The notes under the pieces are model-generated. The model was given only the letters and a program-made list of their open reading frames with translations, searched no databases and had not been told where the DNA came from. Position numbers and translations under genes: made by a program. A DNA stretch of 64,000 nt, taken from NCBI GenBank assembly GCA_003864495.1, contig ML133454.1, forward strand, positions 3,507,442 through 3,571,441, read 5' to 3'. Position 1 is the first letter of the stretch. Each line of letters begins with the position of its first letter. The stretch is from Nemopilema nomurai (Eukaryota; Cnidaria; Scyphozoa; Rhizostomeae; Rhizostomatidae). Of the stretch, positions 1,433 to 44,348 are shown one piece after another.

Positions 1433-2805
1433 TTATATTTGCTTATATTCCGCTGCGCTGTATGTTTTGATATTCTGTAGTAGATCTTCTAGAGCCACAA
1501 GAAGTATACTCTCTCGAGTCTCGACTACGGCTACACCCCCAATCGTCATCCAGATTCCTACAAATTTATCATTATTTCCAATAAACTCCAGCTTACCATT
1601 TCTAAATGGCTTTTTTCTATAGCTGAACAAACGAGCCTTTTTGGAGGAGCTTTTGACTTCAGCGAGAATACTGTTCAGGTTCACACATGTTGTCGATGGG
1701 TCGAACTGGCCCTTGAGGACATTGTCTTCATACTGCCCTTGCCAGTTGCCAGCCGGCCTGTACCGTGCGACTATGTAGGTGCAGTACATCTTTTTCTGCG
1801 TGTTCTCCTTGGTGAATCGACCGATGCCTAGTATGGTGCTGCCCTTCCATACCACTTGCGTGAAATGTCCTGTTCCTTTCACTGGCTTTGCTGGCTTTAC
1901 AAACTCGTACCCCGGAGAACAAACCTCCTTGTACCTTGACGGAAGCAAAATATATTGGTAAAAATTCTAAAGTAACTAATTTTCTGTACTACAAGTTCCT
2001 TGTATCTTTTAGGTTTTCTAAGGAATATGATACTTTGCCGTTAAGAGAAGGTTCTCTTTGCACAAACTGTGACCTATATGCGGGATACTCTCATCACTTT
2101 TTAAAACCCCTTTTCACAGTTTTCGATGGAGCATGTCTTCTGCTATTTTGCAATTTTGAATATGTAAGAATCATTACCCTTTTATCTTTTTAGTTTGATT
2201 TTCTTTCTCTAGATAACTTAAAATCAGTATGCTCTATGGCTCATTATTTTTCTGCTAGTGTACCGGACTCGGTCTACAGAGCAGTTGCCACCGAATGCGT
2301 TGATCCTGAAATACCAGACTTGGTGCCCATGCCCCGGAGCATGTTTGCTTAGCACCGATCCAAACAAGGCGAAATCGGCCTTCACCCGACGGGAGTCGGT
2401 CTCGCGGCTGACCGAGCTCTCCCCAAGCACTCTCAAGGTCTTCGCCCACCGCAAATGTACGACAATTCTCTACGACATCCCCCGACATAATGGCTTCCCA
2501 TTCGCCTTGTCAGGTGACTAGGGCGTATCGGATGGGAATTGAGCTCAACATATGACGTCTAAATCCAAAGTAAACATACCAGTTTTTGGTTGCCTGCACG
2601 GCGCTCATTTCAATATTCTTGGAGGAGCAGCCCATTGCCAGGTTCTCGCCATCTTTTGAGTCGGAGTGCTCGAGGACTTCCTTCTCGGCAATCTGTTTGG
2701 CGTAGGCTGCGCAGCTCTTTGACAAATCTCCATCAAGAGTCATCGGACCAGAGCCATGAATCTTCCGCAGTATATTGTGGGCCTGCAAGCCGCTCTGCTC
2801 AAAGT
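1433..2805 (-). CDS. M13: last CAP domain and C-terminus of gene B
   Basis: A exon 2805-2580 (LQAHNILRKIHG, VLEHSDSKD, GENLAMGC) and B exon 1934-1433 (Y-K-E-V-C, GTGHFTQVVWKGS, GIGRFTKE, YCTYIVARYRPAGN, EDNVLKGQF, STTC). The pocket tetrad and all four cysteines are intact, and this domain is close to M5 and M4. The tail is about 75 residues: Lys/Ser-rich, then a moderately hydrophobic stretch (FVGIWMTIGGVAVVE) and a helical end before TAA at 1433. No phase-1 donor is apparent before the stop, which makes this the terminal exon. The hydrophobic stretch is short and interrupted by a Glu, so I do not call it a membrane anchor. Confidence 0.8.
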
Positions 2806-5800
2806 CTGAAAGAAGACAACCTTGCTTGAAGCCTGCTGTAGCCCATCTTATATTTTGATAGCAAAGAACACCTTGACATTGAGTTTAATTGTAAGTATGC
2901 GAGTTATAGAGCTAAGCTGAAATTGACTGTTTTTCAAAAACGCATTGAGCTGCCTCCACTCGCCTGCTTTCTGCTACAAGTGTGACACTTTAAACATTTT
3001 TAAGCCAGTGCATGGGTTATTTCCATTCGAAAAATCAGCTACGAGAAATGATTCACATGATTCCATTGAGACTTACCATCTCCTCCTGCCTGTACTTGCT
3101 TTTGAGGAGCCGCAGTGGCGGTCGTGCTTGGCTGAGCTGCTGTAGTTTCTGGTCTCGCTGTAGTTGCGACGTTTGTCTGGGGTGGGTTTGTTGGTTTTTC
3201 TGATACTGGCATCTTTTCCAAAGTCGTAGGCTTGGCTATCGTTGGTTGATTTACATTAGGCGCGCGAGTTGGACCAGTTTTAACAGGCTTTGTCTTCATC
3301 TCCGTTGGCGAGGGAGCTTGCGTTGTCTCTTTGCTTGAGGGTGTATTTGTTGGCCGAACTGAAGCTGTACCTGACGGCTTTTGGGATGGCCTAACAGGCT
3401 TCTGTTGTGGTTTCCCCTCTGGCTCTCCCGATGGCTTTCCAGCTGGCATCCCGGGTGGTTTCCCCTGTCCGTTTCCAGTTGGTTTCTTCTGTGGCACACC
3501 TGGTGGTTTCCCCTGCGCTACCCCTGTTGGTTTTCCCACTGGAACACCTGGTGGTTTTCCTTGTGCTACCCCTGTTGGCTTCTCCTGAGATGGATCTTCT
3601 GGATTTTCTTGTGTTACTCCTGTTGGTTTCTTCTGTGGCACCCCTTGTGGTTTTCCTTGTGCTACCCCTGTTGGCTTCTCCTGAGATGCATCTTGTTGTC
3701 CCCCCTGTCCCACTCCTGTAGGTTTCCCTTGTGCCGTCCCAGTTGGTCTCCCCTGTGGCACACCCTGTTGCTCTCCCTGTTGCCCTCCCTGTTGCACACC
3801 CTGTGGCTTCTCCTGCGTTTCACCCGGCGGCCTGGGTTGTGGCATCTCCTGTGGAAGTTTTCCCTGTGGTTTTTGTTGTGGTTTCCCTTGCTTTATACCG
3901 GGTGGTTTCCCCGTTGGGCCCGACGGAGGACCTGGCGTTGTGGGCGCTGTTGTTGGTGGTGCTGGCGTGGTGAAAGTAGCGGCGGATGTGGTACGGGCGG
4001 CCTGCGACGGTTTCCCAGTTGGGGTGGCTGGCACGGTGAATTGCGTAATCGGCGTTGGACTGGTAGCATCAATACCGATGGCGGAGGTGGGCGTCGGCAT
4101 CCCCACGGAGTCCTGTGCGGAGCCTGGCGGACCAGCTGTTGTTGGCGCAGTCTGAGACGGGGGTATTGTAGTGACCGGTTTTGGCGGGGGCGTTGGCTCT
4201 GTTAGACGCTGCTCCTCAATCTTCTTTTCCCTGTACTTTACCGCTGCGTCTGCAAGAATCAACTCAGGGTCCGAACACTTGCTTGGGTCAAACTGCCCTT
4301 GTTTCACGTTTTCCTTCACTTTTCCGATATAGTTCCCAGGCTCTTCATACATGGCAACAACACAACTACAGAAGTCGCCCGACGCCTTGTCTTTGAAGTC
4401 AACTTTTGCCATGCCGAAGTAGCTCGTTGCCCTCCAAATCATTTGAGTGAAATGATTAGGTCGTCCGGAATACGAACCTTCAGCAAAGCTGTTCTGATTC
4501 TCACACGCCTCAGAGTACCTGGAAAAAGTGCCAATAACAGTCTGCATTCAACAATACAATCCATGTTTCATTAAAACATATCGCTAATGAAAGAGATCGG
4601 TAGAAAATTGCTTGGATATTGTATGAATTTTCAAACATCTTTCTAACGAAAAAATTAGAAAATACATACACGCTGCCTAACAAATTCGTTGAAGAATTAC
4701 CGAAAATGGAACAATCAGCGAAGGATAGTCGGTAACATTATTGAACAAATATTATCTGCAGTTTTTCCCTAATCTTTAAGAGCTAATGATTGTAATGTTT
4801 TCAAGGGGACACTGCTTCACCAACTCAGCTGGAGAATAGAAGCCAGGCTTGGGAAGATGTTAATATCCGGTTTCTGCGTTGGAGCATTGGTCAGACAATG
4901 CACCTCGCTCGCATTTCATGTCAATCCACCCCTAATCAAGACGTTTAGCACACTGCCGTCTTAAAGATGATAATATGGCAAGCGAGATGACTTAGAACAT
5001 CATCTTGCATAATTCATTGCCGCCATCTTTGTGAAAACACTTCCATTCTAATGTTGTTTTTCGCGTTTTTGGTACTTTAACAGTAGCAGCCATATTGGGA
5101 CTATCGGTATATCCGTTATGTACTGGATAGTGCAACTTGATTATTCCCAACATGTAAAAAATGATGAAGGTTTATTGGCAAGAAGCAATATGAAACGAAC
5201 CAGTTCAGGATGGCATCCTTCGCTGAATACTCTGTCTTGATCGTGTCACACAGGATGACAAGGTTCTCCCCACTCTGCTGTACCATATTGCCTCGCTTGC
5301 CTTGCGATGCCACACCTTTCTCAATCATCCCCTTGCAGCGCTTTTGTGCAGATAAACTTAATCTATCGAGCAGTATCAGATCCTTTGACGTGTGTAGACT
5401 TCGCAGCTCATTGTGAATCTTCAGCCCATCTTTACCGAATTTCTTGGTAGCTAAAAGGTAGCCAGATTAAAAGCTTGTACCATTTATGATGATTGATTAT
5501 GATATTTTTTTGATTAAATGGGAAAGACTGAATGCGGCACAGCGATACAGATAGCACTTTCGTTCTCTTTAAAAATTTTAGTAAAAAACTATATCCCTTT
5601 CTCAAGACAGTATGATGAAACAAGAAAATCAATCGACCAGAAGAACACGATTATTGCTGCCACGTCTACTCAAAAGAAGAGCTGAAGATGGAAGAAGTAA
5701 CAGTCTGGAAAAAGGGGAATGAATTAAAAAGTAATTATCACTGTCGATGACTCTTTGAACATCTTGTATTAAAATTTCAGGTGCTCGTGACTAGAAGTTC

Positions 5801-8800
5801 ATGTCAATGGCTTCCATGGGATGAACTGAAGGGATTTCATAAAGGGTGCAAAGAACTATTTTATCAGAGATCGGTCTAGAATTACAATGCAACATGTTAC
5901 TTGACTTTGATGACACTAATCTATGATAGTACTACACACGGACCCCCCCCCCCCCCCCTCTTATTACTCAATTCATTTGGTTCCGTTCGGGACATGTTAG
6001 TCATCATACCTTCGATTGGTGGCAATTTTGCAATCGACTGTCCCAATGTCAAAACTTTTTCAGGCTTCCGTTTTCTTTCCTGCTTAGCCCCCGGTTTCGT
6101 CTCTCCTTTCAGTGTCTTTGACGGGTGTTTTTGCGCTGCTTGTGGGTTGATCCCTTTGTTTTTTCCTGGTATTTTTACCGGCTCCCCGGCATTCTTCATG
6201 TCTGGCATCGGATTTCCCTGGTTAGTTACCGGCTTGCTTGGCGTCTGCGTTGGGATCTTTTGCGTTGGCGTCTGCGTTGGGACCTTTTGCGTTGGAGTCA
6301 GGTTGTCATCCAAAACAGGAGCATTGGCACCCTGCGTGGGCCTAATTGTGGTGCTTGGGGCCTCTGTAGGCTTCCCTTCGTCAATTTTCTCCCCTCCCCC
6401 GGCATTCATAGGCTTTTGCATCGCCTGACCTGCAGTTGGTCGGTCCGTGTTTTTCACCATATCCGCTTTCGGTGTATCAATAACCTTATCGACATTTTTG
6501 CAAAATTCCAATGAGAATTCGCCCCGTTTCACATTATGTCGAAACTGTCCGATAAGATTACCAGGCGGCTCGTACCTGGCGACAATAATGGTGCAAAGAT
6601 TCCCGTTCACATTCGCTGTGGCCTTACCAATCCCTAGAAGCTCTGTTGCTTGCCAAACTATCTGCGTAAAGTGGCCTGCTCCATTCAGACCTTCTTCGGC
6701 AAAATCATAGTTAGAAGTGCATGCCTCTTTGTACCTGTTGCAGAGAATAAAATGCAAATAAAATTAGATCCATCCCATGAAAGGTATCCTCTCTCTTAAA
6801 ATTCCTATTTGATTTCGGTTAACAAACAGCCTCAGCTGTAAGTAAACGTTCTGAATTTAATGGCAAATCAAATGGCTTCACTATTACTCTTAATTAGGCA
6901 ATTTGTGAATAAAGACTTAATCAATAGTTTGTGATTTCAAACCTTCTTAACTCCTAAAGTCTTTTCCTGTCCATTTCTTTTCTAAAACTTTCTTATTGTT
7001 GTACTTTTGAAAAGCAGAGTTGCAACGCTCTTTCCTATTCTCAAATAATACAGGGGCTCCGATCGGTTTTTAGCCCGCATTTGCAGACTATTTTCACATT
7101 CTCATTCCTAAGGACGTTTCAAACCTCGCAAGAATTTGCCTAGCGCAGTTTTAGCTTCAAGCAAACGTACCAAGCTTTCACTGCTGCTCCAACAGTCAGC
7201 TCTTCGGAGCACTTGACTGCAATGCTTTCGCCTGAACTGGCGTCTGAACTGCGAATCTTCTTCTCAGCCAACAACTTCTTTGCATATTGTAGGGCGCCAA
7301 GACTTAACGCGGGAGAGAGCTTCAAATCTTTGGCGCCGTGAATTTTTCGCAGGTAATTGTGAACTCTGAGTCCTTCATCTTCAATTTCACCTAAAATGCA
7401 ACACAGGAACTAGGTTTTGAAACAAGGTCATTTATGCTTTTAACGACTTGAGAGACTGAGCTCGAAGTCTCATGTTGAGATGTACAAGAGATGGTCATTG
7501 CAAATTGACCTATTATGATTATGCAGGTTTCTAATTATAGAAAACCTTTGCCAGTGCCCATCCTTTTGTACAGGTCAGAGCTTTGAGTTGGAGCATCATG
7601 AAGTACTTTGCATTGCTGATACTACGAGTAAGTTGTAATTGCTGGTACTACGATATTGCATTGCTGTTGCTACGAGTAATTTGTTATTACTGATACTACG
7701 AGTAAGTTGTAATTGCTGATACTACGATATTGCATTGCTGATACTACGAGTAAGTTGTAATTGCTGATACTACGATATTGCATTGCTGATACTACGAGTG
7801 AGTAGTCTCAAGCCATTAACTTACCTCTACACTTTGGGTTGTCAGTGCCCTTGCTTGCGCACCTCTTGGTGCCTAAAGGCCTCGAGCTGGGAATTTTGTG
7901 GTACACTGGATACTTGAATGGCTCAAAGGTTCCAGCCTCGTGACTCACAGCCTTCAAAATCTGATTGGCTACTGCTGGGCCAAATGACCAATGATTGTGC
8001 ATAGAGGGTGGCACGTGCAACGCTGCAGTGATGGAATGGTCCATGGCTGCATTGAAGGCGATTGTATTCAAGCTGCCGCATATCGATGGGCTGAACGAGC
8101 CTTTCAAAACGTTCTCTTTATATGAACCAGCTTTATTTCCAGGTGGCGAGTACTTCGCCACAATGTAAGTGCAAAACAGGTTGTCCTTTGATCTCTTGGT
8201 AGCAAATGCAATGCCGAAGTCTTCCGTGGACTTCCAAACAAGCTGGGTGAATTTCGAGGTCTCTTTTGGCGTTTGCTCGTTGTCGAATTTGTAGCCTTTA
8301 TCACAAACTTGCTTATACCTGCAAATGGAATCATTTGAAAATTAGAAGCACCTATCGTAGATACGTAATGGGAGCAGTTTAATCAATATAAGGTCAAAAT
8401 TTTACATCTATGGTTCTGGACACGTGATGTAAATGTCAATAAACTTTTCAGTGTCATGAATCTGTCGATATAACAATCAACTCTTGTAACGAGTATAATA
8501 TATTTCTTATCATTTTCTCGATGATATTTTAACATAGCTAATGATGTCATGCTGTGACGCCACCTTACACGTAGAAAATCACATCACTGTGATCAGAATC
8601 TCTCATCGAGAAGCCTGTTCTTGCCTCTCTCTCTCAGCCAAGCCTACGCAAAACAAGCGACACCTCTTGAGAGACCGATGCACCTACCAGTTGGTTACTG
8701 CTTCCGCTGCACTAACTCGCTGGCTAGCTATGTTGCAAGCAGACCCAACGTTCTCCCCAATCGTCTTGTCTATTTTGCTTCGCTTGGTCTGTTTGGTGCA

Positions 8801-11800
8801 CATGTCTTTGACATCTTCCAAAGCTTTCCTCACAAGGTCTTCATTGATCAGCAGGGGCGGGCTGTTGTGAATGCGTCTGAAGTAGTTGTGCACCCTGAGG
8901 GATTCCCCAACAAACTTGGCCTGATCTACAATCAGCAATACCAGAAACCAACTGAGCATTTGTCTATTCGCAACAGATTAAGCTAGTTTGTACCTGAAGT
9001 AATACTAGCTAATGCTGTTTTTAATCCATGCCAATGATGGCAATGATGATTTTAGAATCTAAAAACCGTGGCCAATGTGATGGGCAACCCATTAAATTGT
9101 TTAAAAATGGTGGAATAAAAGGTTTATTGACAAGCGCTCTTTTCAATTTTAGTTTTTTTGATGTTGTTGTTGGTATGATTGTTTTCTCTTTTATAAGAGA
9201 AATGGGTCCTTTAGCTTTTAACAAAATTTACGAGACAACATTTGGAATAAGAGAGTTTAAGAAAATGTAAAGAAAAGAGTAGAAAGTCATCTTCATATCT
9301 TATCAATTTAGAAGAAAAGGACTGTTGCCAATTGTCACATTTCTGTTCCAGGCAAATACAAAATGTATGTACCATCAATGGAGCCCATGAGACACTTATC
9401 TCCGAGGGCCAAATTTGCAGGCGATTCAGGGGTGATGTGGAGTTTTGGTTTCTTCGTGTTCTTCTGATCCTCCTTTTTGTCCTCTTTTGGTTTATCGGCC
9501 TCTTTTTCGTTTTTCCCTTTCTTGTCATCAGAATCATTGGCTGGTTTGGTGGAGGGGGATTCCTTGGCACCATCGCTGTCGTCGGCCTTCCCAGACGCGC
9601 GTTTAACGATTTCTGTGAGATTCTGGCAGACGTCAGATTTGAAATCCCCTTTTTTCACTTCATCTTTGAACTGTCCCACCCAATTCCCGGCTGGCTCATA
9701 TCTCGCCACAAAGTAAGTGCAAGTCTTCTCATTCCTTCGTATTATTGCCCGTCCGATACCAAGCATTTTCGTGGATCGCCAGACGATTTGAGTGAAATGA
9801 GCTGTGCCAGGCGAGCTTGGGTCTTTATTGAAATCGTAATCTTTTGTGCAAGCCTCTTGGTACCTTTAAGGTATCATGAAGTTAATGCTATGAATAATTT
9901 AGAGCTTTGCAAGGAAAACTTTACGAGAAGAAGTGGCTAAAAGCAGGCTAAGGTGCTCCCTTGTTTTACCACTTGTCTCAGTTTGACTAAAAACTAGGCT
10001 CAAATTGGCTGACATTGTCATTTTAGCAGTAAACGCAAAAAACGTATCGTAACATTTTCAGCTTTATCACATAAAGGCTGGCTACTAACCAATTATGATT
10101 GCCACAAAAAGAAGACTTTAATGAGTATTTGCTCAGCTTAGCGTCGATGTACACCATAATCATACAATAATCATACTCCAGTGTTTCAATCCACTTACCA
10201 ATCCTTTATTGCCTCACTGACTGATGGGATACGCCCTTCAATATTGCATGAAAAGGCTAAATTCTCCGCAATGTTTTTTGCATGCTCAAACTTGTCGCTC
10301 TCTGCCAAAAACCTGGCATAATTCTCTGCTGCTATGCTAATCTTAGGGCTCAGCTTCAGCGCAGGCGCGTTGTGGATCTTTCTCAACGCATTGTGCACCT
10401 CCAGAGCTATTTTGTTTACGGCATCTGCAAATGAATTGAATTGGCACAGAAGTGCATTTGGTACAGACGTGCATTTGGTACAGAAGTGCATTTGGTACAG
10501 AAGTGCATTTGGTACAGAAGTGCATTTGGTACAGAAGTGCATTTGGTAAAGAAGTGCATTTGGTACAGAAGTGCATTTGGTACAGAAGTGCAAATAAGTC
10601 TAGCTGTTGTTATTGTTCCATGGAACATATTTCAATTCGACGGAATATAGATTTGTTATAGTAAAAGCACTAGCAATATCGTTTTAGCTTTCTTCAATTT
10701 TCAGCTGTATTGTATTTACACCTGCAGTCTATTTTTAGCATATTTTTCTAACATATTAACGGAGATTTGATGAGAATGTGCATGACAATTTCGAGTTGGC
10801 TTGAGGTACTGAAAGCCTTACAGAAGTTGTGAATCAAGCTTAATAGCTACCGGTATTTCTATAGTTATATAGTTACTATGAAAGTTACTATAGTTACTAT
10901 GAGTCATTACTATTACTTTTACTATTACTATTACTATTACTTTGAGCTATCTTCTGTAGTTACTATGAGCTATTATGAGTTTAACCTTTGAAGCTGTCTT
11001 CTTGATAATTGTGATTATGCACGCGTGAAACAATCAAAAGGTATCTAAAATATGTTCAAACGAACAAAAACTGTAAATAGAACCAGCGTCGTTTCATGGC
11101 ATAAGGATAAGAAAATTTCAACTCTTCTCACATTCATCTTCAATTGTCTTCCGTTCTGGTTCGACCATCTGGAGATCTTCAAACGACGGCTCGTAATTCT
11201 CGTCAGGGAGGTGCTTGACAAACATCTTCAACTTATCGGGCGAGAGGCTTTCCTTCTCCTGATCCAGTCTGTCCTTTATGTAGTCTGCCTGCACGTCGGC
11301 AGCTTCTTCTTCTTCTTCCTTCGGTCTCGCGCTCCCAAGCTCGCTTAGGCTTGAGGCGTCTGAGTCCAGTGCCGTCTCTGGTAGTGTCGGCTGCGACCTT
11401 CTAAACGCTGCTTCTTCCTGCAAACGGGTTTTTCTCGGTACGACAAAAGTCGAGCCAGTGTCGGAGGCCGTGACGAAATCCACTGGGATCTTGTAATAAA
11501 GGGTTCTTCGCTTCAGTGATGGTTTAGAAGGGTGCTTGTTCAGTATAAATCCATCCTTCTTTCTCCTTTTTAAATCTTCAAAGAGAAAAATTATATTAAT
11601 GTGTTACAATGAACTTTCAAATAGGTAGCACATTCTACAATTAAGAAAACCTATGAAGTCAAGGGTACTTTTTGAGCGTCAATTTATCAATTTTGGGCTT
11701 AAATTAGCATGGGATACTAAGTTTGAAGCATACTTTGAAAAAATTTAGCAAAAAATGTTTTAATTTCATTGTTTCTTGAGTATGTATTTAGTACTTGCAT

Positions 11801-32900: not shown

Positions 32901-35900
32901 ATGCATTCTCCTGCATTTTATCACCGCTTTCAGTTGCCTTCCAAGAATACGAGTTCTTTACAGACTGCATACTGTTTGATTCATCTGCATTTGAAAGTGA
33001 AAACCATTTATCTTTAGCCTCGCCTTGGCTCCCATCTTCATGATTTTTGCTTCCTTGTGAATCATCACTTGCGTTGGCTGCGAGGCCCCATTTGTCTGTG
33101 CCAAATCTCTCCTCCGCATTGGACTGTTCCTCTTTGTTGTTATTTTTGTACGCCTTCTCGTGGCTTTCATGCGGTCTATTAGCTTCGCTGCTGCCGTAGT
33201 AATTTCTGTTATGCATCCCTTCTCCTTGTCCATGAGAAGAACTTACATTGCGATTCTCTGATGCTCCCACAAACTTTAAATTAGTAGGCTCCTGATTACC
33301 TCTAACTTCATCTGCATTATGCTCCATTGCAGAGTTGCTGACCATCTTCTGCACTTGATAATCCTTGTTTGCACTGGCCGTGTTGGTGAACCTATCGGCC
33401 GTTTCATTAGCTGCATTTTCAAAGGATAATCTTCCAGAACTCTTCCTGCTTGACTCAAAATGATCTTCACTTGCTTTCATGTTGTCTTCCATCAAATCTT
33501 CATGGCTAAAATCTTGATCATCCATTCCATTTCCTTGATAGTTCGTTGCCTCTTTTACTGCGGAGAATCCTTCATTCTCTCTAGCAGTATCTTTTCCTTT
33601 CGCTGAAACAAACTCAGCCACCTTATTCTTGATAGCACCTCCTTTGAATGGTATAAATTCTTGGTCAGATTGTCTGTCAATTTTATTCTGCAGAGGATGG
33701 GTTGGTTTTATTTGAATAATGAAGTGGTGGGAATCCTGCATATCTATCTCAGGTGAAAATGATTTGTGAGGCTCTTCAGTTGTGAGAGAGCTTTGTTTTT
33801 CTTTGCTAAATGAGAGCATCTGCTTCTGCCTATCAACGCGTGAAAGTCATTGTTTCCTCTCTCCTTATAATAATTGACATTTTTATCAAGACTATACCCA
33901 TCTGTTGAGCTATTTCCTGAAGTCTGCCTATGTAGCTCAGACGACGATGTTTGGCTACCGTGCTCCCGATTGGTTTCTTGTTCCAATCTGCTTTTCTGTG
34001 GCTCGTTCATTTTCACATGAGGCTCCTGGTACTGTATCTTTATGAATCCAGCTCCTACGTTTATAGTTGTACTGTTTTCTGAATCTTTCTGAATTTCAGC
34101 TTGGCTTGAGGACCCAGAAGTGTTGCGACTGCTCATCAAGCCTTCAGAAGCGAGGTTCTGTGAAGTGTCCCTACCATAATGACCAACATTTTGCATGGTA
34201 TCTGAGCTATTAGAATTATACTCAACAGCCCCTGCTCTTGAAGCTCCAACTTGATGAAGGCTAGTGCTAACAATAGGTTCCTCGTATTCACTTGCTGGCC
34301 TCTCTTTGTTGTGTAACTTTGCCGATTCTTGCTCAACCTTTTCTTCACTTGAAACCTTATTCAAATGTGTATTTAGATTGCTACTTTCAATTTGGCTTGA
34401 CAACTGATTGTCCTTTAAGCTTTCAGTTATTGGATGAAACGCATTCCCTTCCTCTGCTTTCGTTACATTTTCAGCCAATTTGCTTTCCAATTCTTTTCCA
34501 GCTTTCGGATATTTGTCTGTTGTCAGGTTCTCCCTGTCATACTCGTTTGAATTTTCTGACGAATTCAAAGCTGGTTTGATACTACCGGAGAAGCTCTTTT
34601 CGGCACCACTTGACTGATATCGGCTTCTTGAATTCGACGGCGATTCTTCACGGTGACCTTCTAATCTGCCCTCTAGCCTTTGACCTATGTACCCTGTAAC
34701 ATTCTTTTCGGGTTTTTTATGAAATAAATTATCTTGCTGCGATAGGATTTGCTTCTCAATATCCATGAATTTATTATTTTCAACTCGTCCTTGGCGATGC
34801 TTCTTTTTTTCTATACTATGATCAGAAACTTCAGCAAATTCAAAAATTTTCATGAATTTATGATTACTCATAGGGCTTGAGCCTCTATCCCCTATGAGCT
34901 CTGCATGGCGCTCGTGTCCACCTTTGTTTGTTGATATCTTAGTAGCGCCACTCTCCTCTACATTTTGAGCTCTGTCCTCGTGACCGCCTACATTCTTGTC
35001 ACTTGACAGTAAACTCATTTCACTGTTTCTTTCACTGCCTGGTGAAACCATTCTGTTTTGCTCAAAATGAGATCCTTCATTAGGCCTACTTTGTTGCAAG
35101 CCCTTATGAGTGACTTCATCCCCTGTCATTGGACTCTGCTTTGATTTCGACCAAGACCCATCATCAGTAGATTGGTCATCTTCCGCCTTTGACGGCACCT
35201 TATGCTCGATAGAGCCAACAGTTCTGTGTACCGGAACCAGAACACTGGAATTCGTTGTCACATTTTTAAAATTGTCGTTTGTGTATGACACCGTCACATT
35301 TGGCGCCATATTTTGACGAGGAAGAGTTTTGTTCGCAATTGCTTTCTGCATGTGTTCTGATGCCAGATCAGTTGTCTCGTCAGTGAATCCATAATCTCCT
35401 TTCCCGCCCTCCTTTGCATAGCTCGCCACTTCATCATTCTCCAACTTCTTCGAAGAGAAGTAATTGTCGTTAGGCGGCAGTTCACCGCTGTGCATCAATT
35501 TTTTCGCAATTCTCAAGTATGTGATTGAATTGTCTTCGTTCTTAAAGTTCATTCCTTTCCTATCCTGGAACATATGTACCAGCTTTTCGTCGTTATTTAG
35601 CTGGTTGGTCTTTTTTGTTCCCTTCTCTACACCTCCCACCTTTACTTGATCAGCCGCACCTAGTTGATGCTCAAAGCTCTGATTTACAAAATCACTCATT
35701 TTGTATCCTGCATCTGATTTAACGTTCTCAGTGAGATTTTTCATAACACCAGCGTTCTTCGGCTCGCTAAGCATTTCTTTGTTTTCTTCCCGCTCAAAAA
35801 ATTCATCATCTGACGTGATTATTTTTCCGGACTTGCCCGCAAAGCGAGCGACCGGATTGAACGCTGTTGGACCCGGGCTGCTATCCCTGTCACCACCCAC

Positions 35901-38900: not shown

Positions 38901-39116
38901 AGGAGCTGTTGAAGATTGGAACTGAAAAAAGATCAACTCTCTTGATGGCTGCTTCAGTACCAAAGTGCTCTGTTATTATGAATCTTTCTAACTGGACGTT
39001 GAAATGATGCAGATGTTGTATTAATAGTATGGCATCAGTTTTTAAATTATAAATAAAAAGGCTGTTACTACCCTAAATTTTAATTATTTAATAATCTAAG
39101 GATACGGAATGATGTG

Positions 39117-39148
<32 letters not shown>

Positions 39149-42100
39149 TATTGAAGTTTTGCTATTGCTCGCACATAAAACTTCTTCAAATTTGCTTTTC
39201 CTGGAAAATGCAATTCTCCGAGTGCTTCCTTATTTATCAATCAGCTACTCCCGATCTTCAAATCGCTACTCCTGATCTTCAAACCACGTGCACGCACAAT
39301 GAGCTCATATTGTCTGAAGCAACATCACGTGACTTATACGGTTCGGTGCGTTGCAATGGTTTGGGCATGTGCAGGAGCGGGTGAAAGTTGTTGGTTCAAG
39401 ACAATGGGTTCATTTATACTTAACCTGGGATGCACCCGCCTCGTACTCTCGGACTATGATTACTTGAGGCTGATTGAAAAGTAAAATGTTAGGTCAGCTC
39501 GCTAACTCAGCCTCGAGACATGAAAGGTGAATGTTTTCATTTCACGTCTCTACCTCCCTCCCAAGCTTTCATCAATTGACCTTATTAACGATGAAGCCAA
39601 ATATCATCTTCCGAGAAAAATATTTCGGTGCATATTAGATTATCTCCGTATGGGAATGCCTGATTGAAAGCTTTTAAACCAACTTACAAAAATAGTCTTA
39701 CTTTTAGAGCTTTTAATTGGACTGAATAAAACAATGTGAAATTTGGATATTGTGCTTTGTTGGGAAGAAAAGCAGTTCATTTCAGAGTTCCAACTATGCA
39801 TATGAAATGCATGTAGCCTGCAGTCTGTCAATGTCTTATTATACTGGAGTTTCTACTGTATCCTATTGTTGTTCCCATTTACTGACTGTAGCCAGTATGA
39901 CAAGTAATCATGCATGACAAGTGAATGTTACAAGGAATGTAGGTCAGCTACGATTCAAGACATGGAAAATGCAGCTCTACAAATCGATGCCTTCAATTAT
40001 TGCATATGCCACAACACGAAGATAAATACCATGCCATGCCTTTTTGTCAAGTTGCCTTCAAGAAGCAAACCACAGAAACAACATCTTACCTTCAGGTTCA
40101 CAAACAGCACTTCTCTTCTTCTTGCAATTTGCAAAAATCGACTTGGCACCCGGCTGACAAGGTGCCTTCCTCCGTTCTTCCTTCTCCTCCCGCTCGTCCT
40201 GAGCAAATTCGTCGGTGAGCAGCTTCAATTCTTTGCCGAAGTCTTTGTCATTATCGCTGCTCAGAACTTTGTCGATAAGCAGTGTGTTGAGAGCGTTGCT
40301 CAATTCTCCCATTCCGTGCGAGAAGCCATCGTTCTTAAACAGTTTCTTGCTTGCCAAAGGGTCGGCGATTTTGACAGTGTCCGAGTTGTTTTCTTCCAGG
40401 GGGTCCTGTGGCGTGTCGTACACAAGAAGATTGCTCTCTTGGTTGCGTGAAGGGCGAGTTGGAAATGGAAGGCCATCGCTGTATGCTATTTTGTATTCAT
40501 TCGAGCTGACAGTGGGCACTTGAGTCTCACCAAGCGGCGAAGCTGTATGAGGTATGAGCGCAATGGTTAAACCTCCACGAAAAACACTTTAGGCTATAAG
40601 AGTCAGGGGCCAGCAAGAATATGACCAAGAAGTATACAATCTTGATTTATTGTACTTTTTAAGGCATTTTTTGCTTGCTCTGATTGCTTCTACATGGATT
40701 TCCATAGTGGATATACAGAATGCCAACTTAGCCTTTAGACTAGCTTTCCTAATCAACTAGGGAACTTTTCGATGTTGCTCTTATGCTTACTCGTCATTTC
40801 GTTCATGTGTTCATGTTAACATGTGTTCACCATTTCGTGATGTTATAGTATTTTGATTGCTTTTTGGAAAAGGAGCCCTCGAGAGAAGGGAGCCGTTTTT
40901 GAGTGAATTCTATTTTTCATAGAGCTTTTACCGTGGATAATCAAAAACATAGTTGAAGAAGTAGCCTTAACACATTGGTCCGATAAAGTGAAAGGCAGCC
41001 ATCAAAAGTCGTCTTTTCAAGATGAGCGTCCTGGTTTTATGTCCCACTCTGGATTGATTATTTCCTCAGACAGAGATTTGATCGTAACCAGACAGAGGGA
41101 CGCATAAAGCGCATTACGTCATATGCCTGTGAGTTTCAAGTGATTAAATCAATCAGCCTAACATATTCAAAGTTCTTTAAGACTTTAAAGTGTCCTAGAT
41201 TTTAGTTTAGGCAACTAGCAAGCCATAAGCATGACATAAGCTGCGTATTCGATGGTTGTCTTCAAGGTCTTTTGGCTCTATTTTTTTGCTTCCTCAGAAG
41301 GGAAGTACGTAGCCACAGTGGCAGAAGAAAAAGGAGTAGAGTGTCAATGCAGCAATAAGGCATTTACAGCAACATGAACAGTTATTTTAGGTTCTTTTCT
41401 AGTGGCATTTTGCGAGTCCATGGTGCATTGTTGTGCCCAGGGTAATCGAGGATCGATTACTGCTTTTAACATCTTTCTATTTATTACAGTTTATATTTCC
41501 GTGCATACTACGAGTACTTCATTAAAAGAAATGACGACATCAAAACGTAAGTTGCAAAGTATTTAATTGAGAGCCATCTTTGCTTTCTTGCAAGGCCTTT
41601 AAAGTCTCTTTGTGTATGTGACCTGATATTTTTCTTCCGTAACTGTTAATCATCAAAGTTTAGCGGTTACTCTTCTTTAAAGATTTAATTATAACAAAGA
41701 AGAACAAAGCTTGATTCGGTTATAGTAAGCGGGAATGGAAGAGTAATTATTTCCATGCCATGACCCTTGGTGTGTATTTAGAATAGTTTGTAAAAGGCGT
41801 CATATTCTTGAAGAAACGCAGACAATCTTTATCTTGCAGGAAAACTTTCTTTGTCAAAGAACAGCCAGACGCTGCGAATTACGCAAGAACATGCCAAATT
41901 GGTTTCCTGGGTACACATAAGAAATTCGTGGAATTGACTCTTGGATGGCTCTGGTCAAGTGATGATGAACGAGATCAAACAGCAATGCAGTCTTCAAATG
42001 CACTGTTAAAGCAAGCGTCGACAGTTAATTATAGACGCTGGGACATGAAGATTTGCTTTCTAATCATACGGTGTATGTCGAAAGTGCCAGCCACGGATTG

Positions 42101-44205
42101 CCAAAATTTAATGCAGAGAGGGATTGCCCAGCGCATTTGGCAGTTCATTTCTATCATGCCGTATTTGAAAATCTGAGCATTCAATGATCATGGGAGAAAA
42201 GTTCAACTGTTGCTTACTTGAGTGTGGATTGAGAGCCATCTCCAGGTCAGGAATCTGGACATATGACCAACAGACAGCTTGCTTGGGCAAAGTAAAGCGT
42301 GCATTTTGTTCTACGTTAAGCGTTAAAAGGAATAGGCATTGTTAGAAGGGGCGCGGACCCCGTTGCCTGCGCTATCTAAAAATATCAGCGAATCAAATCA
42401 AGACCCTTCTCTTTTGGACGTCTCTTCGCATGATCAGTTTCACAGCAGCGACCTTGACTAAGTGGCGGAAAGTTATTAGTGTTCGCCTCCTAGCTAATTG
42501 ATACGTGAAATTGATACGTAGTTATAGTGAAATTGCAAGGAAAACTATTGACAAGTATGGTAGAATCAAACGTAGGATGGGTTTTCAAACATCGAAGAGA
42601 CGGTTAAAATGGATCTTCAAGGAAGCTAGGTCGTTTATTACAAATGAAGAGTTGGTGTTGAAAGGGATATAGCTGTGAAGGTACAAAGCCCAAAACTGAG
42701 AGAAACTGTTGTCTTGGCAGAGCCAATTTATCAACACGGAAAGAGCAGGCATTGTGAAAAGGTTATTGTGTCGAAGTCTTCCAGTTGAGGTAGTTTACGA
42801 TGCGCCGTTTTCCTCTCAAGCACGTGACAGGGAAAGCCCAATCGACCATGCACTAAGCGTGTTGACTTGAATTGAAATCTATTTTTGCAAAATGTCGCCT
42901 TATCTGTGCCTATTCCCTTTAAATGTGAAATAAAGATGTTCATCTATATAAGATTACCTTCAACGTCGGCCTCTGGCATAGGAGCATACAAAGACTGTTG
43001 CCCAGTTGCCTCGCTGTGAACTCTCCCCACCTCAGGATTTGGAATCTGGCTGTCCAATGATGCATCGGTGAAGTACTCTTCCCGAGCATCCACTAAATTC
43101 TCTCTATTAAACCCAGAAATAATGTCTCGTCTTGCAGTCGTCGCCACCTTCTTGGCTTTCCGCACGTGACTTCTTTTCGAAGCTGCTCCATGAAGGCTTC
43201 TTGCTAAAGATTAAATTTGTCGTCATGCAGAAGGTACAAGCCAAAGAGAAAACTTAACATGAGTTTGAGTAAACCCACTTTTCTAATTTCTTCCCAAGCC
43301 ATTTTTACCTTGGATTTTTGGTGGAATGAATTATTAACATTGCAAAGTGAAGCCAATAGATATGAAAGTATGAAGCTCAACCAATAAGAAATGCACATAT
43401 TTGTCACATGCTCCACCCTCGTGATGTACACCCAACTAGACCTAAGAAGGTAACTTGAACGAACTCGTATGCACAAATTTCATAGCATTGTACGCCTTTG
43501 CTCCCTCCAGAGTCTTTGTAGTCTAAAGCTCTTGCGCAGCTGTTCCAAACTCGCACTACACGTGACCTTTAAAAGGTGGCCTATACCCAAAGGTGTTATT
43601 GCTTCACTAAGACCGGGGATATAAGGGAGGAGAGTAAGAGCTACTGCCCTTTGAGAAACTATGAAACAGCCAGCCGGTAAAGATTATTATACATAAATGC
43701 TTTTCTCGGGTGTCGAATATTCCGTGATGGGCCCTCTGGCTATGCTCCCGCAATTTGATAGAATTTTAACGCAGTGCCTGATAACTTGTTATTTCAATCT
43801 TATTTGTTGATTATCCTCTCTCAAAACTCCAGCGCATTCCATATCCCTGTGTTCCCAAATCATAATTTTTGCTAAATAATCTGATGAATTGCAATAAATG
43901 TTTATCTACACACCAAGCATGCTTGCAAGGTAAATTGGTACACAACAATATTATTTTGATAATGAAATTGCCATTATCAAAGACCCTCGCAAGAAGAGGG
44001 GGCACTGTATAAAAGTGTATGTTTTTATATCCTGAAACAATAGGGAAACACTGAAAACCACGGTGGAGAATATTTCGTATTTTTTCTAAATTCTCCAGAT
44101 TCAATATGAAATTATGACGCATTTATGGACTAACTTACCAGGAAGGATCGTCAGAATAAGAATGAAGAACACAAGTGAATTCGTGTGAAGAAAACGGCCG
44201 CGCAT
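16595..44205 (-). CDS. Gene A: giant secreted protein with seven CAP/SCP domains (M1-M7)
   Basis: Exons in transcription order: 44205-44139, 43203-42958, 40542-40090, 38702-38456, 37255-36981, 36475-32064, 31732-31486, 31353-27768, 27352-27100, 26796-26162, 25591-25348, 25086-22697, 22274-22049, 21799-20514, 20055-19936, 19503-19398, 19079-18649, 17946-17718, 17330-16595. All have GT/AG borders; A/B junctions are phase 2, the rest phase 1. The total is about 5,400 codons. The first exon encodes a signal peptide and the last ends in TAG with no donor at that point. Each CAP domain resembles GAPR-1/GLIPR2 but carries extra cysteines. CAP proteins bind sterols, lipids or protein partners in secreted settings; the role here is unknown, and an extracellular matrix or mucus function is inferred. 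Oddities: one frame break in the M1 linker and many in the M2 linker. The M7 exon also holds an internal phase-1 donor at 16798 that could join to gene B. Separate small genes are unlikely because most A exons lack a start. Confidence 0.72.
18649..20055 (-). CDS. M6: CAP domain 6, first half split by an extra intron
   Basis: This is the only module whose first half is in two exons: 20055-19936 (EFEQSALNAHNRFRAVHDAP to AWAQHCA) and 19503-19398 (ELGMARRSNSPD, GENVIESC). They are joined in phase 1 across a 432-bp intron, and each is too short to stand out alone. B exon 19079-18649 has Y-S-E-L-C, GTERFTQVVWAST, GIGRATRV, LCTYIAARYRAPGN and NVQKGSI. The first pocket His is missing and the second is Arg (ERF), so the pocket is likely dead although the fold-defining motifs and four cysteines remain. 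The linker is short (about 60 residues, Gly/Asp-rich) and ends at donor CAAG|GTAGCT in phase 1. Confidence 0.8.
20514..22274 (-). CDS. M5: CAP domain 5 with Ala/Thr/Gln-rich linker
   Basis: A exon 22274-22049 (LESHNMYRRQHG, RLDHSGTED, GENIASVC) and B exon 21799-20514 (Y-N-E-I-C, GGAGHFTQVVWKGT, GVGRAEV, VCTFVVARYRPAGN, FAKNVLRGSF, AKRC). The pocket tetrad and four cysteines are complete, making this one of the most canonical domains in the array. The linker of about 330 residues begins charged and becomes Ala/Thr/Gln/Asn-rich (VANVAATQQAPS, TTNAAMTKFAAN), a composition typical of flexible or O-glycosylated spacers. It leaves by donor ACGG|GTGCGT in phase 1. The Met upstream of the A exon lies in the intron's pyrimidine tract and is not taken as a start. 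Confidence 0.82.
22697..25591 (-). CDS. M4: CAP domain 4 with long linker bearing IPESLxRIL and KQQNAG repeats
   Basis: A exon 25591-25348 (VETHNKLREIHK, FLKHDVSL, GENLAIGC). B exon 25086-22697 (Y-Y-E-V-C, GTGHFSQVVWKST, KCTYIVARYSPGGN, EKNVLKGDF), an open 2,390 nt. The His-Glu-Glu-His pocket and four cysteines are intact. After the domain come a Lys/Met-rich helical segment and six tandem K-Q-Q-N-A-G units (24570-24677). A basic Pro/Lys/Gln-rich region follows, with six spaced copies of H-x-(I/L/V)-P-x-S-L-x-(R/K)-(I/M)-L (about 23115-23715). The donor GGAAG|GTCAGT in phase 1 lies six codons before a stop. The linker is strongly cationic. A ligand-binding or bundled-helix role for the repeats is only inference. 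Confidence 0.82.
23115..23715 (-). repeat. Six coding repeats of H-x-I-P-E-S-L-x-R-I-L in the M4 linker
   Basis: In translation order the copies are HQLPASLLKMI, HKIPESLARIL, HKLPESLLRIL, HQIPESLRRIL, HKVPYSLFKML and AIPESLQRIL. They are spaced by roughly 27-45 residues of basic, Pro/Ala/Lys-rich sequence. The core P-x-S-L-x-(R/K)-(I/M)-L is the most conserved part of an otherwise low-complexity linker, which suggests selection on the peptide. Its function is unknown. Confidence 0.85.
24570..24677 (-). repeat. Six tandem 18-bp units coding for KQQNAG
   Basis: The plus-strand unit CTGTTGCTTTCCCGCGTT occurs six times almost perfectly, encoding K-Q-Q-N-A-G in the M4 linker. Near-identity at the DNA level shows recent expansion or homogenisation. 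The unit is a multiple of three, so length changes keep the frame. Confidence 0.95.
26162..27352 (-). CDS. M3: CAP domain 3 with short Lys/Gly linker
   Basis: A exon 27352-27100 (LMWHNRLRCIHL, VLQHSTLD, GENLAMTC) and B exon 26796-26162 (Y-N-D-I-C, GTGHFTQLIWKNT, GIGRATIKK, FCTVVVARYSPKGN, EFRENIDKG). Pocket residues are His, Glu, Asp (for Glu) and His, so nearly intact. All four array cysteines are present. The linker of about 125 residues is Lys/Glu/Gly-rich with a short helical stretch (EIQKVTHMIKTLEKEK). It ends at donor GAAG|GTCGGT in phase 1, some 14 codons before the frame's stop. The A exon follows acceptor GATTTCAG in phase 1 and has no start codon of its own. Confidence 0.82.
27768..31732 (-). 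CDS. M2: CAP domain 2 plus frame-broken linker
   Basis: A exon 31732-31486 encodes ATEHNKYRNIHS, ILHSPLKSRPG and GESIEKLC. B exon starts at 31353 with Y-E-E-V-C, GTGHFTQIVWKDT, GIGLAA and VCSFIVARYFKAGN. The pocket residues (His, Glu, Glu, His) are all kept. The frame shifts at about 31130, just after the end of the domain. The alternative frame restores the fourth array cysteine (CTNSAS) and continues as a Ser/Arg/Lys-rich linker. Further frame changes or stops occur near 30785, 30335, 29850, 29620, 29310, 29270 and twice between 27950 and 27860. The exon then ends at a phase-1 donor (GAAG|GTAAAT) at 27768. The linker is either decaying or locally mis-sequenced. Its product in this assembly would be truncated soon after the CAP domain. 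Confidence 0.62.
32064..36475 (-). CDS. M1 linker: about 1,470-residue disordered, glycosylation-rich exon
   Basis: One very long exon from acceptor TTTTAG at 36475 to donor CAAG|GTAAAT at 32064. The product is hydrophilic and rich in Ser, Asn, Glu and Lys, with few hydrophobic runs, almost no cysteine and many N-x-S/T sites (for example NITF, NVTVSY, NVTTNSS, NVTGY). An early stretch is Pro/Glu/Lys-rich (EEPKPAPVRRPVEPE). The reading frame changes once near 33.83 kb: the upstream frame runs to a stop at 33744, and the downstream frame is open from about 33838 to the donor. The exon is 4,412 nt, one base short of what its phases require, which fits a single-base deletion in the DNA or the assembly. 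I see no convincing short intron there. Its role as an extended glycosylated spacer is inferred from composition. Confidence 0.68.
36981..38702 (-). CDS. M1: CAP domain 1 of gene A (degenerate pocket)
   Basis: A exon 38702-38456 (247 nt) encodes the helical first half: IHNLFRKIHG, then VHSLRKDRPG and GENIAVGC. B exon 37255-36981 begins Y-S-K-A-C and has PFAQLVWKATS, GIGKAV, LCTYIVARYSPEGD and ENVLKGTF. The four cysteines typical of this array are present. Of the GAPR-1 His-Glu-Glu-His tetrad the first His and the GEN Glu remain, but the second Glu is Lys (YSK) and the second His is replaced (VEPF instead of GHF), so the metal/substrate pocket is probably not functional. The intron between the halves is 1.2 kb. 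The B exon ends in Lys-Gln-Gln before a phase-1 donor that joins the long linker exon at 36475. Confidence 0.82.
38703..40089 (-). other. Intron of gene A before M1
   Basis: About 1.4 kb between the cysteine-cluster exon and the M1 A exon. It holds an AAT microsatellite at 39116-39149 and otherwise unremarkable AT-rich sequence. No further exon was found in phase. Confidence 0.5.
39116..39149. repeat. (AAT)n microsatellite
   Basis: About eleven consecutive TAA/AAT units in the intron upstream of the M1 A exon. It is a perfect trinucleotide run, likely polymorphic. Confidence 0.95.
40090..40542 (-). CDS. Gene A exon 3: unique N-terminal region with cysteine cluster
   Basis: A 453-nt exon (151 codons, phase 1 to 1), acceptor CATACAG at 40542 and donor GAAG|GTAAGA at 40090. 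The first two thirds is acidic and hydrophilic with a helix-like segment (LSNALNTLLIDKVLSSD). It is followed by a run of charged residues (DEREEKEERRK) and three cysteines in the last 25 residues (APCQPG, FANCKKK, AVCEPEG). No family is recognised. The cysteine cluster could form a small disulfide knot or pair with other chains; that is inference. It directly precedes the first CAP domain. Confidence 0.62.
40543..42957 (-). other. Largest gene A intron
   Basis: About 2.4 kb between exons 2 and 3 of gene A. A plus-strand open frame at 41808-42176 has no recognisable similarity or splice context and is left out. I see no repeat or RNA gene here. Confidence 0.45.
42958..43203 (-). CDS. Gene A exon 2: unique N-terminal region
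   Basis: A 246-nt exon, phase 1 to phase 1, with acceptor ATCTTTAG at 43203 and donor GAAG|GTAATC at 42958. It encodes about 82 residues, starting with a basic Arg/Lys stretch (KRSHVRKAKK) and then an acidic, Asn/Gln-containing segment without cysteines. No domain is recognised. The stretch after the basic cluster could be a propeptide or a disordered spacer; that is inference. Gene B has no counterpart. The call rests on matching phases with the signal-peptide exon and the following exon, and on the open frame across its full length. Confidence 0.6.
44139..44205 (-). CDS. Gene A first coding exon: signal peptide
   Basis: The ATG at 44205 opens 22 codons plus one base. The peptide begins MRGRFLHTNS and has a hydrophobic core LVFFILILTILP, then a consensus donor (G|GTAAGT) in phase 1. 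A basic n-region followed by a leucine/isoleucine core is a classical secretory signal. The phase matches the acceptor of the next exon at 43203. The exon lies about 140 bp downstream of a 33-bp tandem repeat that may be part of the promoter. The untranslated leader upstream cannot be delimited from sequence alone. Confidence 0.7.
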
Positions 44206-44348
44206 TCTGTGTCATTGTTGAATTTCCTTCGAAGAATGAAATGTGATATTTGTAAAAAGGCCATTGCAGAATTTAATGAAAACGTCTTTGAAATATAATT
44301 GAACTTAACCATGGGTTTAGTTCGAAACGAGGTCTATAACTCAAGCAT

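What the first reader, a model, noticed from the sequence alone, without database searches (positions are those of the whole stretch)
1433..44205. A 43-kb locus encoding one or two giant poly-CAP proteins with 13 arrayed CAP/SCP domains
Seen: 13 pairs of A/B CAP exons on one strand. Junctions between modules are phase 1 throughout, and most A exons have no own start. In nearly all B exons a consensus donor precedes the stop. Gene B exons sum to exactly 1,953 codons. Known: CAP proteins (PF00188; GAPR-1, CRISP, PR-1, VAL) normally have one CAP domain, and two-domain forms are known from nematodes. Inference: a secreted filament-like or matrix protein presenting seven, six or thirteen CAP domains is an unusual architecture that may be undescribed.
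Basis: partly seen in the sequence, partly recalled or inferred. Interest (0 to 1): 0.85.

Follow-up and report, generated by a model that had tools for sequence, protein, structure and literature searches.

The report
Jellyfish giant genes with many CAP domains
A jellyfish-like genome carries three neighbouring genes predicted to make giant secreted proteins with 7, 6 and about 30 copies of the CAP domain on long flexible linkers, where one or two copies per protein are usually described.

Summary
The window has 13 two-exon CAP modules on the minus strand, forming two genes, each with its own signal-peptide-like start: gene A (44205-16595, 7 CAP) and gene B (13689-1433, 6 CAP). The array continues 65 kb left of the window as a third gene, C (C88:3506467-3442391): 30 modules, Gly-rich linkers, about 9,500 codons. 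In all, 43 modules alternate A-B over 104 kb. Without cDNA, joining is supported by: two gene C exons that each hold the end of one CAP and the start of the next; gene A CAP1-5 pairing in order with a 7-CAP Hydra protein; a Rhopilema protein spanning gene A's signal peptide, CAP1 and CAP2; gene B CAP2, 3 and 5 pairing in order with domains of a 5-CAP protein. Most likely these are secreted multivalent scaffolds, CAP beads on disordered linkers; location (nematocyst, mucus, matrix) is unknown. Thirty CAPs in one transcript is unproven: repeats are near-identical, and some copies carry frameshifts that look like consensus errors.

The parts
44139..44205 (-). gene A exon 1: start codon and signal peptide, phase-1 donor
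   Evidence: of 38 hydrophobic ATGs the only one with a phase-1 donor above 6 bits within 40 codons; matches the start of Rhopilema protein P0005
42958..43185 (-). gene A exon 2
   Evidence: alignment to P0005 across the 44139/43185 and 42958/40542 junctions
40090..40542 (-). gene A exon 3
   Evidence: 84% identical to P0005
38456..38696 (-). gene A CAP1, exon A
   Evidence: 89% identical to P0005
36981..37255 (-). gene A CAP1, exon B
   Evidence: 89% identical to P0005
33959..36466 (-). gene A long Ser/Glu/Lys/Asn-rich linker exon
   Evidence: 43% identity to P0005 over 861 aligned positions; no Pfam match
32064..33641 (-). gene A linker exon
   Evidence: 32% identity to P0005; donor at 32064
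31486..31732 (-). gene A CAP2, exon A
31037..31353 (-). gene A CAP2, exon B (3' end uncertain)
27768..31036 (-). gene A linker region, several exons not resolved
   Evidence: P0005 residues 2027-2967 match in order between 31143 and 28327
27100..27352 (-). gene A CAP3, exon A
26162..26796 (-). gene A CAP3, exon B and linker
25348..25591 (-). gene A CAP4, exon A
22697..25086 (-). gene A CAP4, exon B and long linker (may hold a small intron)
22049..22274 (-). gene A CAP5, exon A
20514..21799 (-). gene A CAP5, exon B and linker
19398..20055 (-). gene A CAP6, exon A split in two (20055-19936, 19503-19398)
18649..19079 (-). gene A CAP6, exon B
17718..17946 (-). gene A CAP7, exon A (weak acceptor)
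16595..17330 (-). gene A CAP7, exon B, basic tail and stop
   Evidence: Hydra P0004 also ends in a basic tail
13361..13689 (-). gene B exon 1: signal peptide fused to CAP1 exon A
11906..12180 (-). gene B CAP1, exon B
11132..11575 (-). gene B linker exon without CAP
10199..10424 (-). gene B CAP2, exon A
   Evidence: pairs with P0002 domain 1
9373..9863 (-). gene B CAP2, exon B and linker
8688..8925 (-). gene B CAP3, exon A
   Evidence: pairs with P0002 domain 2
7825..8318 (-). gene B CAP3, exon B and linker
7171..7390 (-). gene B CAP4, exon A (weak acceptor score)
5944..6734 (-). gene B CAP4, exon B and Pro/Thr/Lys linker
5201..5450 (-). gene B CAP5, exon A
   Evidence: pairs with P0002 domain 4
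3077..4518 (-). gene B CAP5, exon B and Pro/Thr/Gly-rich 400-residue linker
2580..2805 (-). gene B CAP6, exon A
1433..1934 (-). gene B CAP6, exon B and stop (a phase-1 donor at 1597 could lead to a further exon)
1..1432 (-). spacer before gene C; gene C itself (30 modules) lies outside the window at window coordinates -974 to about -65050 (C88:3506467-3442391)

Best explanation
The locus is a cluster of three genes for giant secreted poly-CAP proteins in a scyphozoan-like cnidarian: gene A (7 CAP; at least about 4,200 residues in the parts I could splice, 4,600-4,750 in gene-finder models), gene B (6 CAP, 1,975 residues) and gene C (up to 30 CAP, about 9,500 codons). Each CAP is coded by an A exon and a B exon with a phase-2 intron in a Trp codon. 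Because the outer borders are mostly phase 1, an A-B pair can be duplicated inside the gene without breaking frame, and gene C's units have multiplied that way. Working inference: each protein enters the secretory pathway; each CAP folds with two disulphides (four conserved Cys); the linkers (Ser/Glu/Lys/Asn-rich in A, Pro/Thr/Gly in B, Gly-rich in C) space the domains; the result is a multivalent extracellular scaffold or gel former, perhaps in nematocysts, mucus or matrix. Most modules keep the metal-binding tetrad, so divalent-cation or lipid binding could be the repeated activity. Shown by sequence: module count, phases, three signal-peptide-like starts, order of gene A CAP1-5 and gene B CAP2, 3 and 5 shared with other species, conserved Cys. 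Inferred: one mRNA for all of gene C, secretion, scaffold function, location.
For: Strict A-B alternation of 43 modules on one strand. Phase-1 donor best in 40 of 42 B tails, 28 of 30 distinct. Two gene C exons (-54406..-55029, -55524..-56585) hold B + linker + next A in one open frame, so adjacent CAPs share a polypeptide there without any B-to-A splice. Signal-peptide-like starts found: 44205, 13689 (seen by eye in the A8 frame; below the filter) and -974, for 43 modules. Gene A CAP1-5 group one-to-one and in order with Hydra P0004 CAP1-5 (UFBoot/SH-aLRT 99/97, 100/99, 100/91, 100/99, 100/99). Rhopilema P0005 runs through gene A exons from the signal peptide to beyond CAP2. Gene B CAP2, 3 and 5 pair with P0002 domains 1, 2 and 4 (99-100 UFBoot, 98-100 SH-aLRT). 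M10 and P0002 domain 2 have lost three of the four tetrad residues at the same three places, and a linker motif is shared. Gene C linkers around M21-M23 have in-order counterparts in P0007. Six gene C units: introns differ 4.2-6.6%, the A CAP exon 0.3%, the B exon 1.6%, the 75-bp linker exon 1.6%. Alleles: CAP1 exons 9 synonymous to 2 nonsynonymous codons. HEEH tetrad in 29 of 41 modules.
Against: No transcript was seen. Acceptors are in phase 1 in only 32 of 43, and some gene C exons (those opening with MDLVFTV) have better phase-0 acceptors. Gene C CAP modules at -23.8k and -46.1k carry single-base deletions, a linker exon a 2-bp gap, the KDKEDE repeat a change of frame, and the second haplotype a 1-bp indel in a gene A linker; if real, they would truncate the proteins. 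Between haplotypes, predicted exons of gene A differ as much as introns (54 of 6,885 against 70 of 8,603 positions), and the two long linkers show 11 synonymous to 31 nonsynonymous codons, near what no selection gives. In the six gene C units the B exon has 6 synonymous to 4 nonsynonymous variable codons and the linker part of the A exon 5 to 4, with 4.9% divergence, like the introns. The last B exons of genes A and B also have a phase-1 donor, which a stop there does not need. Starts with another donor phase or a weaker hydrophobic stretch could have been missed; most of the 38 hydrophobic ATGs were not looked at singly, and one search also flagged an ATG at 8959 inside gene B. My gene finder mis-joined genes and took a minisatellite for an exon. 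Hydra's 16 CAPs group with each other. Nothing here tests location or function.
Confidence: 0.7

Rival explanations
1. A cluster of many independent one- or two-CAP genes in tandem, like the 16-gene SCP/TAPS array of Lucilia cuprina, read as multi-CAP genes by mistake.
For: Tandem arrays of separate CAP genes are known (PMC7694928, passages read). Many B exons, above all the gene C repeats, have a stop soon after the donor.
Against: Only three convincing signal-peptide starts were found; donors precede the stops, mostly in phase 1; two exons fuse B and the next A; Hydra, Rhopilema and EukProt models join corresponding modules. Weak: no AATAAA or ATTAAA in three repeat-unit introns of 547 bases, which are near-copies and of which about 0.6 each is expected.
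Confidence: 0.08
2. A polyprotein cut by proteases into single CAP proteins that act separately.
For: Disordered linkers are protease-accessible; polyprotein precursors are known among cnidarian toxins (recalled, not tested).
Against: No RX[KR]R motif in the 10 linkers between two CAPs that were scanned in genes A and B; the only two motifs lie in gene A's C-terminal tail. The CAP2-CAP3 linker of gene A was covered only in its first 53 residues, gene C was not scanned, and other cleavage motifs were not tried.
Confidence: 0.15
3. Genes A and B are one 13-CAP gene with an alternative promoter at 13689.
For: Phase-1 donor at 16798 (6.9) and a phase-1 acceptor-like site at 13607 (4.3) just after the signal-peptide stretch.
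Against: Gene A's own frame ends in a basic tail and stop, and Hydra's 7-CAP relative ends after CAP7 in a basic tail; P0002 holds counterparts of gene B modules only.
Confidence: 0.12
4. Gene C is a decaying or mis-assembled array; the true number of CAPs in one protein is much smaller than 30.
For: Frame-changing deletions in two CAP modules, a linker exon and a linker repeat; stretches between modules are up to 98.7% alike, a hard case for assembly.
Against: The two damaged CAP modules differ from a neighbour by single-base deletions with at most one substitution inside the matching sequence, which looks like consensus error; CAP exons are more conserved than introns; linkers around M21-M23 have in-order counterparts in P0007.
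Confidence: 0.25

Closest known systems
Hydra vulgaris LOC136072146 isoform X2 (P0004, 4,995 aa, 7 CAP; database model, uncharacterised)
   Same: Seven CAPs with long linkers; CAP1-5 pair one-to-one and in order with gene A; basic C-terminal tail.
   Different: CAP6-7 not resolved in the tree; this isoform has no obvious signal peptide by eye; function unknown.
Hydra vulgaris LOC105846415 (P0003, isoform X2, 3,788 aa, 16 CAP; P0001, isoform X4, 2,136 aa, 8 CAP)
   Same: Many near-identical CAPs in one protein; P0001 ends in a basic tail.
   Different: The 10 of its 16 CAPs left after dropping identical rows group together, next to gene A CAP4: an independent amplification, not gene C's ortholog.
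Rhopilema esculentum LOC135691380 (P0005, 2,979 aa)
   Same: Covers gene A from signal peptide through CAP2 and linkers.
   Different: The model holds only two CAPs and stops before CAP3.
EukProt gene19050-20963_t (P0002, 1,476 aa, 5 CAP) and gene1836-16326_t (P0007, 973 aa)
   Same: P0002's five CAPs lie in the order of gene B CAP2-6, three of them paired in the tree; P0007 holds gene C-like A exons and linkers in order.
   Different: P0002 lacks gene B CAP1; P0007 has A halves without B halves; species not named.
Vertebrate GLIPR2-like, insect, lancelet and coral proteins with 3-6 CAPs
   Same: Several CAPs per polypeptide.
   Different: The five proteins put in the tree form their own group (100/98), their domains clustering by species (weakly, 75/62, for the frog); only the 3,507-aa Stylophora protein among them is giant.
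GAPR-1 / Pry1 (1smb, 5ete)
   Same: Best solved relatives of module 13, E 1.9e-18 and 4.8e-17; tetrad residues.
   Different: Single CAP; GAPR-1 lacks the four conserved Cys.
NOWA (nematocyst outer wall antigen)
   Same: Medusozoan structural capsule protein with a signal peptide and a CAP domain (PMC3627010 and PMC11565402, passages read).
   Different: One CAP plus lectin and SEA domains in the Craspedacusta form (PMC11565402); no such match in the ten exons tested.

Membership tests
CAP superfamily (PF00188) | Profile match above Pfam's cut-off | tested here: met
   5 of 5 spliced modules given, out of 41 spliced; P0001 and P0002 too
CAP superfamily (PF00188) | Cavity tetrad H-E-E-H | tested here: met
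   29 of 41 modules have all four; 12 lack one or more; 2 of 43 modules skipped for frameshifts
CAP superfamily (PF00188) | CAP fold | not tested
   only sequence homology to solved CAPs; no model was folded
CRISP (CAP plus C-terminal Cys-rich domain) | Cys-rich domain after the CAP | tested here: not met
   linkers scanned in genes A and B have 0-3 Cys each; no Pfam match above its cut-off in ten exons; gene C linkers not tested
NOWA | CAP plus C-type lectin (and SEA or Cys-rich parts) | tested here: not met
   no such match in ten exons of genes A and B; the other exons and gene C were not given
Medusozoan poly-CAP proteins, Hydra LOC136072146 type | Seven CAPs in conserved order | tested here: met
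   gene A: seven CAPs, CAP1-5 paired in order; CAP6-7 unresolved
Medusozoan poly-CAP proteins, Hydra LOC105846415 type | Orthology of gene C to the 16-CAP protein | tested here: not met
   Hydra CAPs form one group apart from gene C (18 of 30 gene C modules used)
Nematocyst structural proteins | Presence in nematocysts | not testable with these tools
   needs proteomics or in situ hybridisation

The most novel reading that the evidence does not exclude
Gene C makes a single secreted chain of about 9,500 residues with about 30 CAP domains on silk-like Gly-rich tethers, and it belongs to a medusozoan set of poly-CAP biomaterials in which a phase-matched two-exon unit is multiplied inside the gene, separately in jellyfish (gene C) and in Hydra (16 CAPs).
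Probability: 0.45. Interest if true: 0.75.

Novelty: new variant of a known kind. Interest (0 to 1): 0.56.

Why it matters
CAP proteins are mostly discussed as small single-domain proteins whose activity is disputed. Giant CAP chains whose order is kept between a jellyfish and Hydra, and whose domain number has been multiplied separately in each, turn the question from what one CAP binds into what an array of CAPs builds. The locus is also a clean case of growth of a giant protein by duplication of a phase-matched exon pair, and it names candidates for structural or gel-forming material in medusozoans. Automatic database models of relatives exist; in ten literature searches I recognised no listed paper on them, but only listings of at most 20 papers per search were seen and most subscription journals are not held.

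Tried and rejected
Rejected or set lower: one 13-CAP gene as the main form; independent tandem genes; Hydra's 16-CAP protein as gene C's ortholog; the KLELVKLELM stretch at -59875..-61996 as an exon (looks like a minisatellite; an acceptor at -62333 opens the next A exon). Sweet-tooth proteins of the Hydra cuticle were considered: the passages read describe two sweet-tooth domains with a predicted lectin-like beta-sandwich (PMC3531485), not CAP.

Led nowhere: paper searches gave nothing on poly-CAP proteins in what was listed; the Hydra nematocyst proteome paper is not held (identifier recalled). No structure was predicted. Early gene-finder runs joined neighbouring genes, so gene C exon borders remain approximate. 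One search had an off-by-one exon end, corrected. One search was an attempt to find the 18S rRNA for naming the species; it did not complete.

Papers: passages only were seen of PMC7694928, PMC3531485, PMC3627010, PMC11565402, PMC4848628, PMC4321713, PMC6441219, PMC7766711 and PMC4921858; other papers were seen only in search listings.

Full report
What is there. The window is C88:3507442-3571441 of an unnamed 213-Mb genome in 226 contigs. Profiles of the two CAP half-exons, seeded from 8 A and 9 B peptides of the window, find 13 A-B pairs in the window and, once 80 kb to the left was fetched, 30 more: 43 in all between window coordinates 38691 and -64953, all on the minus strand and in strict A-B order. 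One A half in gene A is split by an extra intron. Two weak partial matches (9.1 bits at 57002-57052, minus; 8.1 bits at -2977, plus) were dropped.

Exon rules. All 42 checkable A ends (of 43) have a GT donor within a Trp codon, and all 42 checkable B starts follow an AG, though the latter is partly built into the seeds. The next junction, B to A, is mostly phase 1: the best donor in the B tail is phase 1 in 40 of 42 B exons, 28 of 30 when near-copies are dropped. The two exceptions are a B exon that continues in frame into the next A (-54404) and the last B exon of the array (-64714). A second B exon that runs into its next A (-55522) counts as phase 1 only through a site beyond that A, and the last B exons of genes A and B have a phase-1 donor that a stop there does not need. 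On the acceptor side phase 1 is best in 32 of 43. The splice matrices were trained on these same A-B introns.

Three genes. Signal-peptide-like starts were found at 44205, 13689 (below the filter) and -974. A flagged ATG at 8959 lies inside gene B, where P0002 continues through the corresponding place. The filter accepted only phase-1 donors within 40 codons, so other starts may have been missed. Gene A: 44205 to a stop at 16595. Gene B: 13 exons, 13689 to 1433, 1,975 residues. Gene C: -974 to a stop at about -65050, followed by a gene that looks, by eye, like a 5'-nucleotidase; its listed exons sum to about 9,507 codons in 76 exons, an approximate figure that spans frameshifts.

Evidence that modules share a chain. 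Two gene C exons hold the B half of one CAP, a linker and the A half of the next without an intron. Rhopilema protein P0005 aligns through gene A exons from the signal peptide to beyond CAP2. Hydra protein P0004 has seven CAPs, and its CAP1-5 pair with gene A CAP1-5 in order (99/97, 100/99, 100/91, 100/99, 100/99); CAP6 and CAP7 are unresolved. EukProt protein P0002 has five CAPs in the order of gene B CAP2-6; CAP2, 3 and 5 pair with its domains 1, 2 and 4 at 98-100, CAP4 and CAP6 are unresolved. M10 and its counterpart have lost three tetrad residues at the same places, and linkers share a motif. P0007 carries gene C-like A exons and linkers in order. Whether these database models rest on transcripts I could not check.

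Evolution. Six gene C repeat units differ by 4.2-6.6% in introns but 0.3% in the A CAP exon and 1.6% in the B exon and the 75-bp linker exon; the linker part of the A exon differs by 4.9%, like the introns. Variable codons, synonymous to nonsynonymous: B exon 6:4, linker exon 2:1, A-exon linker 5:4, A CAP 2:0. A second haplotype (C33) covers window 28718-45236 at 98.6-99.6%. There CAP1 exons have 9 synonymous to 2 nonsynonymous codons, the two long linkers 11 to 31; overall, predicted exons (54 of 6,885) differ as much as introns (70 of 8,603); of 16 indels one lies in a predicted exon. So CAPs look constrained and linkers do not. The first modules of genes B and C, M08 and M14, group together (96/92 and 98/85), which hints at gene duplication. 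In a tree of 76 rows (18 of 30 gene C modules, 10 of 16 Hydra LOC105846415 domains after dropping identical ones) frog, fish, beetle, lancelet and coral multi-CAP domains form their own group (100/98), mostly clustering by species, and the Hydra 16-CAP domains cluster next to gene A CAP4. Poly-CAP proteins thus seem to have grown several times.

Assembly caution. Two gene C CAP modules, one linker exon and a KDKEDE repeat carry frame changes. The two modules differ from a neighbour by single-base deletions with at most one substitution inside the matching stretch, which looks like consensus error; intact neighbours exist. The copy number in a near-identical array may also be off.

Function. 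Module 13 is GAPR-1/Pry1-like. Four Cys columns are conserved in 39, 40, 40 and 41 of 41 modules, and the tetrad is intact in 29 of 41. In Pry1 the tetrad binds magnesium, and magnesium restores sterol binding lost with EDTA (PMC4921858, passages). Ten exons of genes A and B have no Pfam match above its cut-off (CAP halves alone fall below theirs), and none of the 10 inter-CAP linkers scanned has an RX[KR]R site. CAP proteins occur in Hydra nematocysts and a structural role was suggested for them, with NOWA as precedent; the same paper doubts such a role for the Nematostella CAP proteins (PMC3627010, passages). CAP domains were also reported among putative toxins of Rhopilema (PMC7766711, passages), so a venom role is not excluded. 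I infer a secreted multivalent scaffold, with nematocyst, mucus or matrix all open.

Species. Size and contig number resemble the published Nemopilema nomurai assembly (213 Mb, 255 scaffolds, PacBio and Illumina; PMC6441219, passages), and gene A CAP1 exons are 89% identical to Rhopilema. This is an inference; the tools gave no name.

Verdict. Novelty is a new variant of a known kind: relatives exist as unnamed database models, but 30 CAPs in one predicted gene is the largest count among those I saw.

Noticed in passing
window -59875 to -61996 (C88, left of the window): Long minisatellite-like stretch open in one frame (KLELVKLELM repeats) between two gene C modules.
   Followed up: partly
window 49671-50420 and 52231-52644, + strand: Reading frames that by eye look like a rhodopsin-type GPCR in two exons, on the opposite strand.
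   Followed up: no
window about 54 kb to 73.8 kb, minus strand: Many predicted 84-bp phase-0 exons with coiled-coil-like protein, upstream of gene A (rough gene finder).
   Followed up: no
window 54222-54708: 50-bp tandem repeat, 9.8 copies, 98% matches.
   Followed up: no
window -69547 to about -69974: Start of a gene that by eye looks like a 5'-nucleotidase, just beyond gene C.
   Followed up: no
L020 (C90:1418001-1428000): A second place with two A-like and two B-like CAP exons on one strand, perhaps a small multi-CAP gene.
   Followed up: partly
L018-L019 (C33:85001-101439): Haplotig of window 28718-45236 at 98.6-99.6% identity.
   Followed up: yes
M08 (window 13587) and M14 (window -1076): First modules of genes B and C are sisters in both trees (96/92, 98/85), hinting that the two genes arose by duplication.
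   Followed up: partly
P0005 C-terminus: The Rhopilema model seems by eye to leave the gene A reading frame near its end, before CAP3.
   Followed up: no
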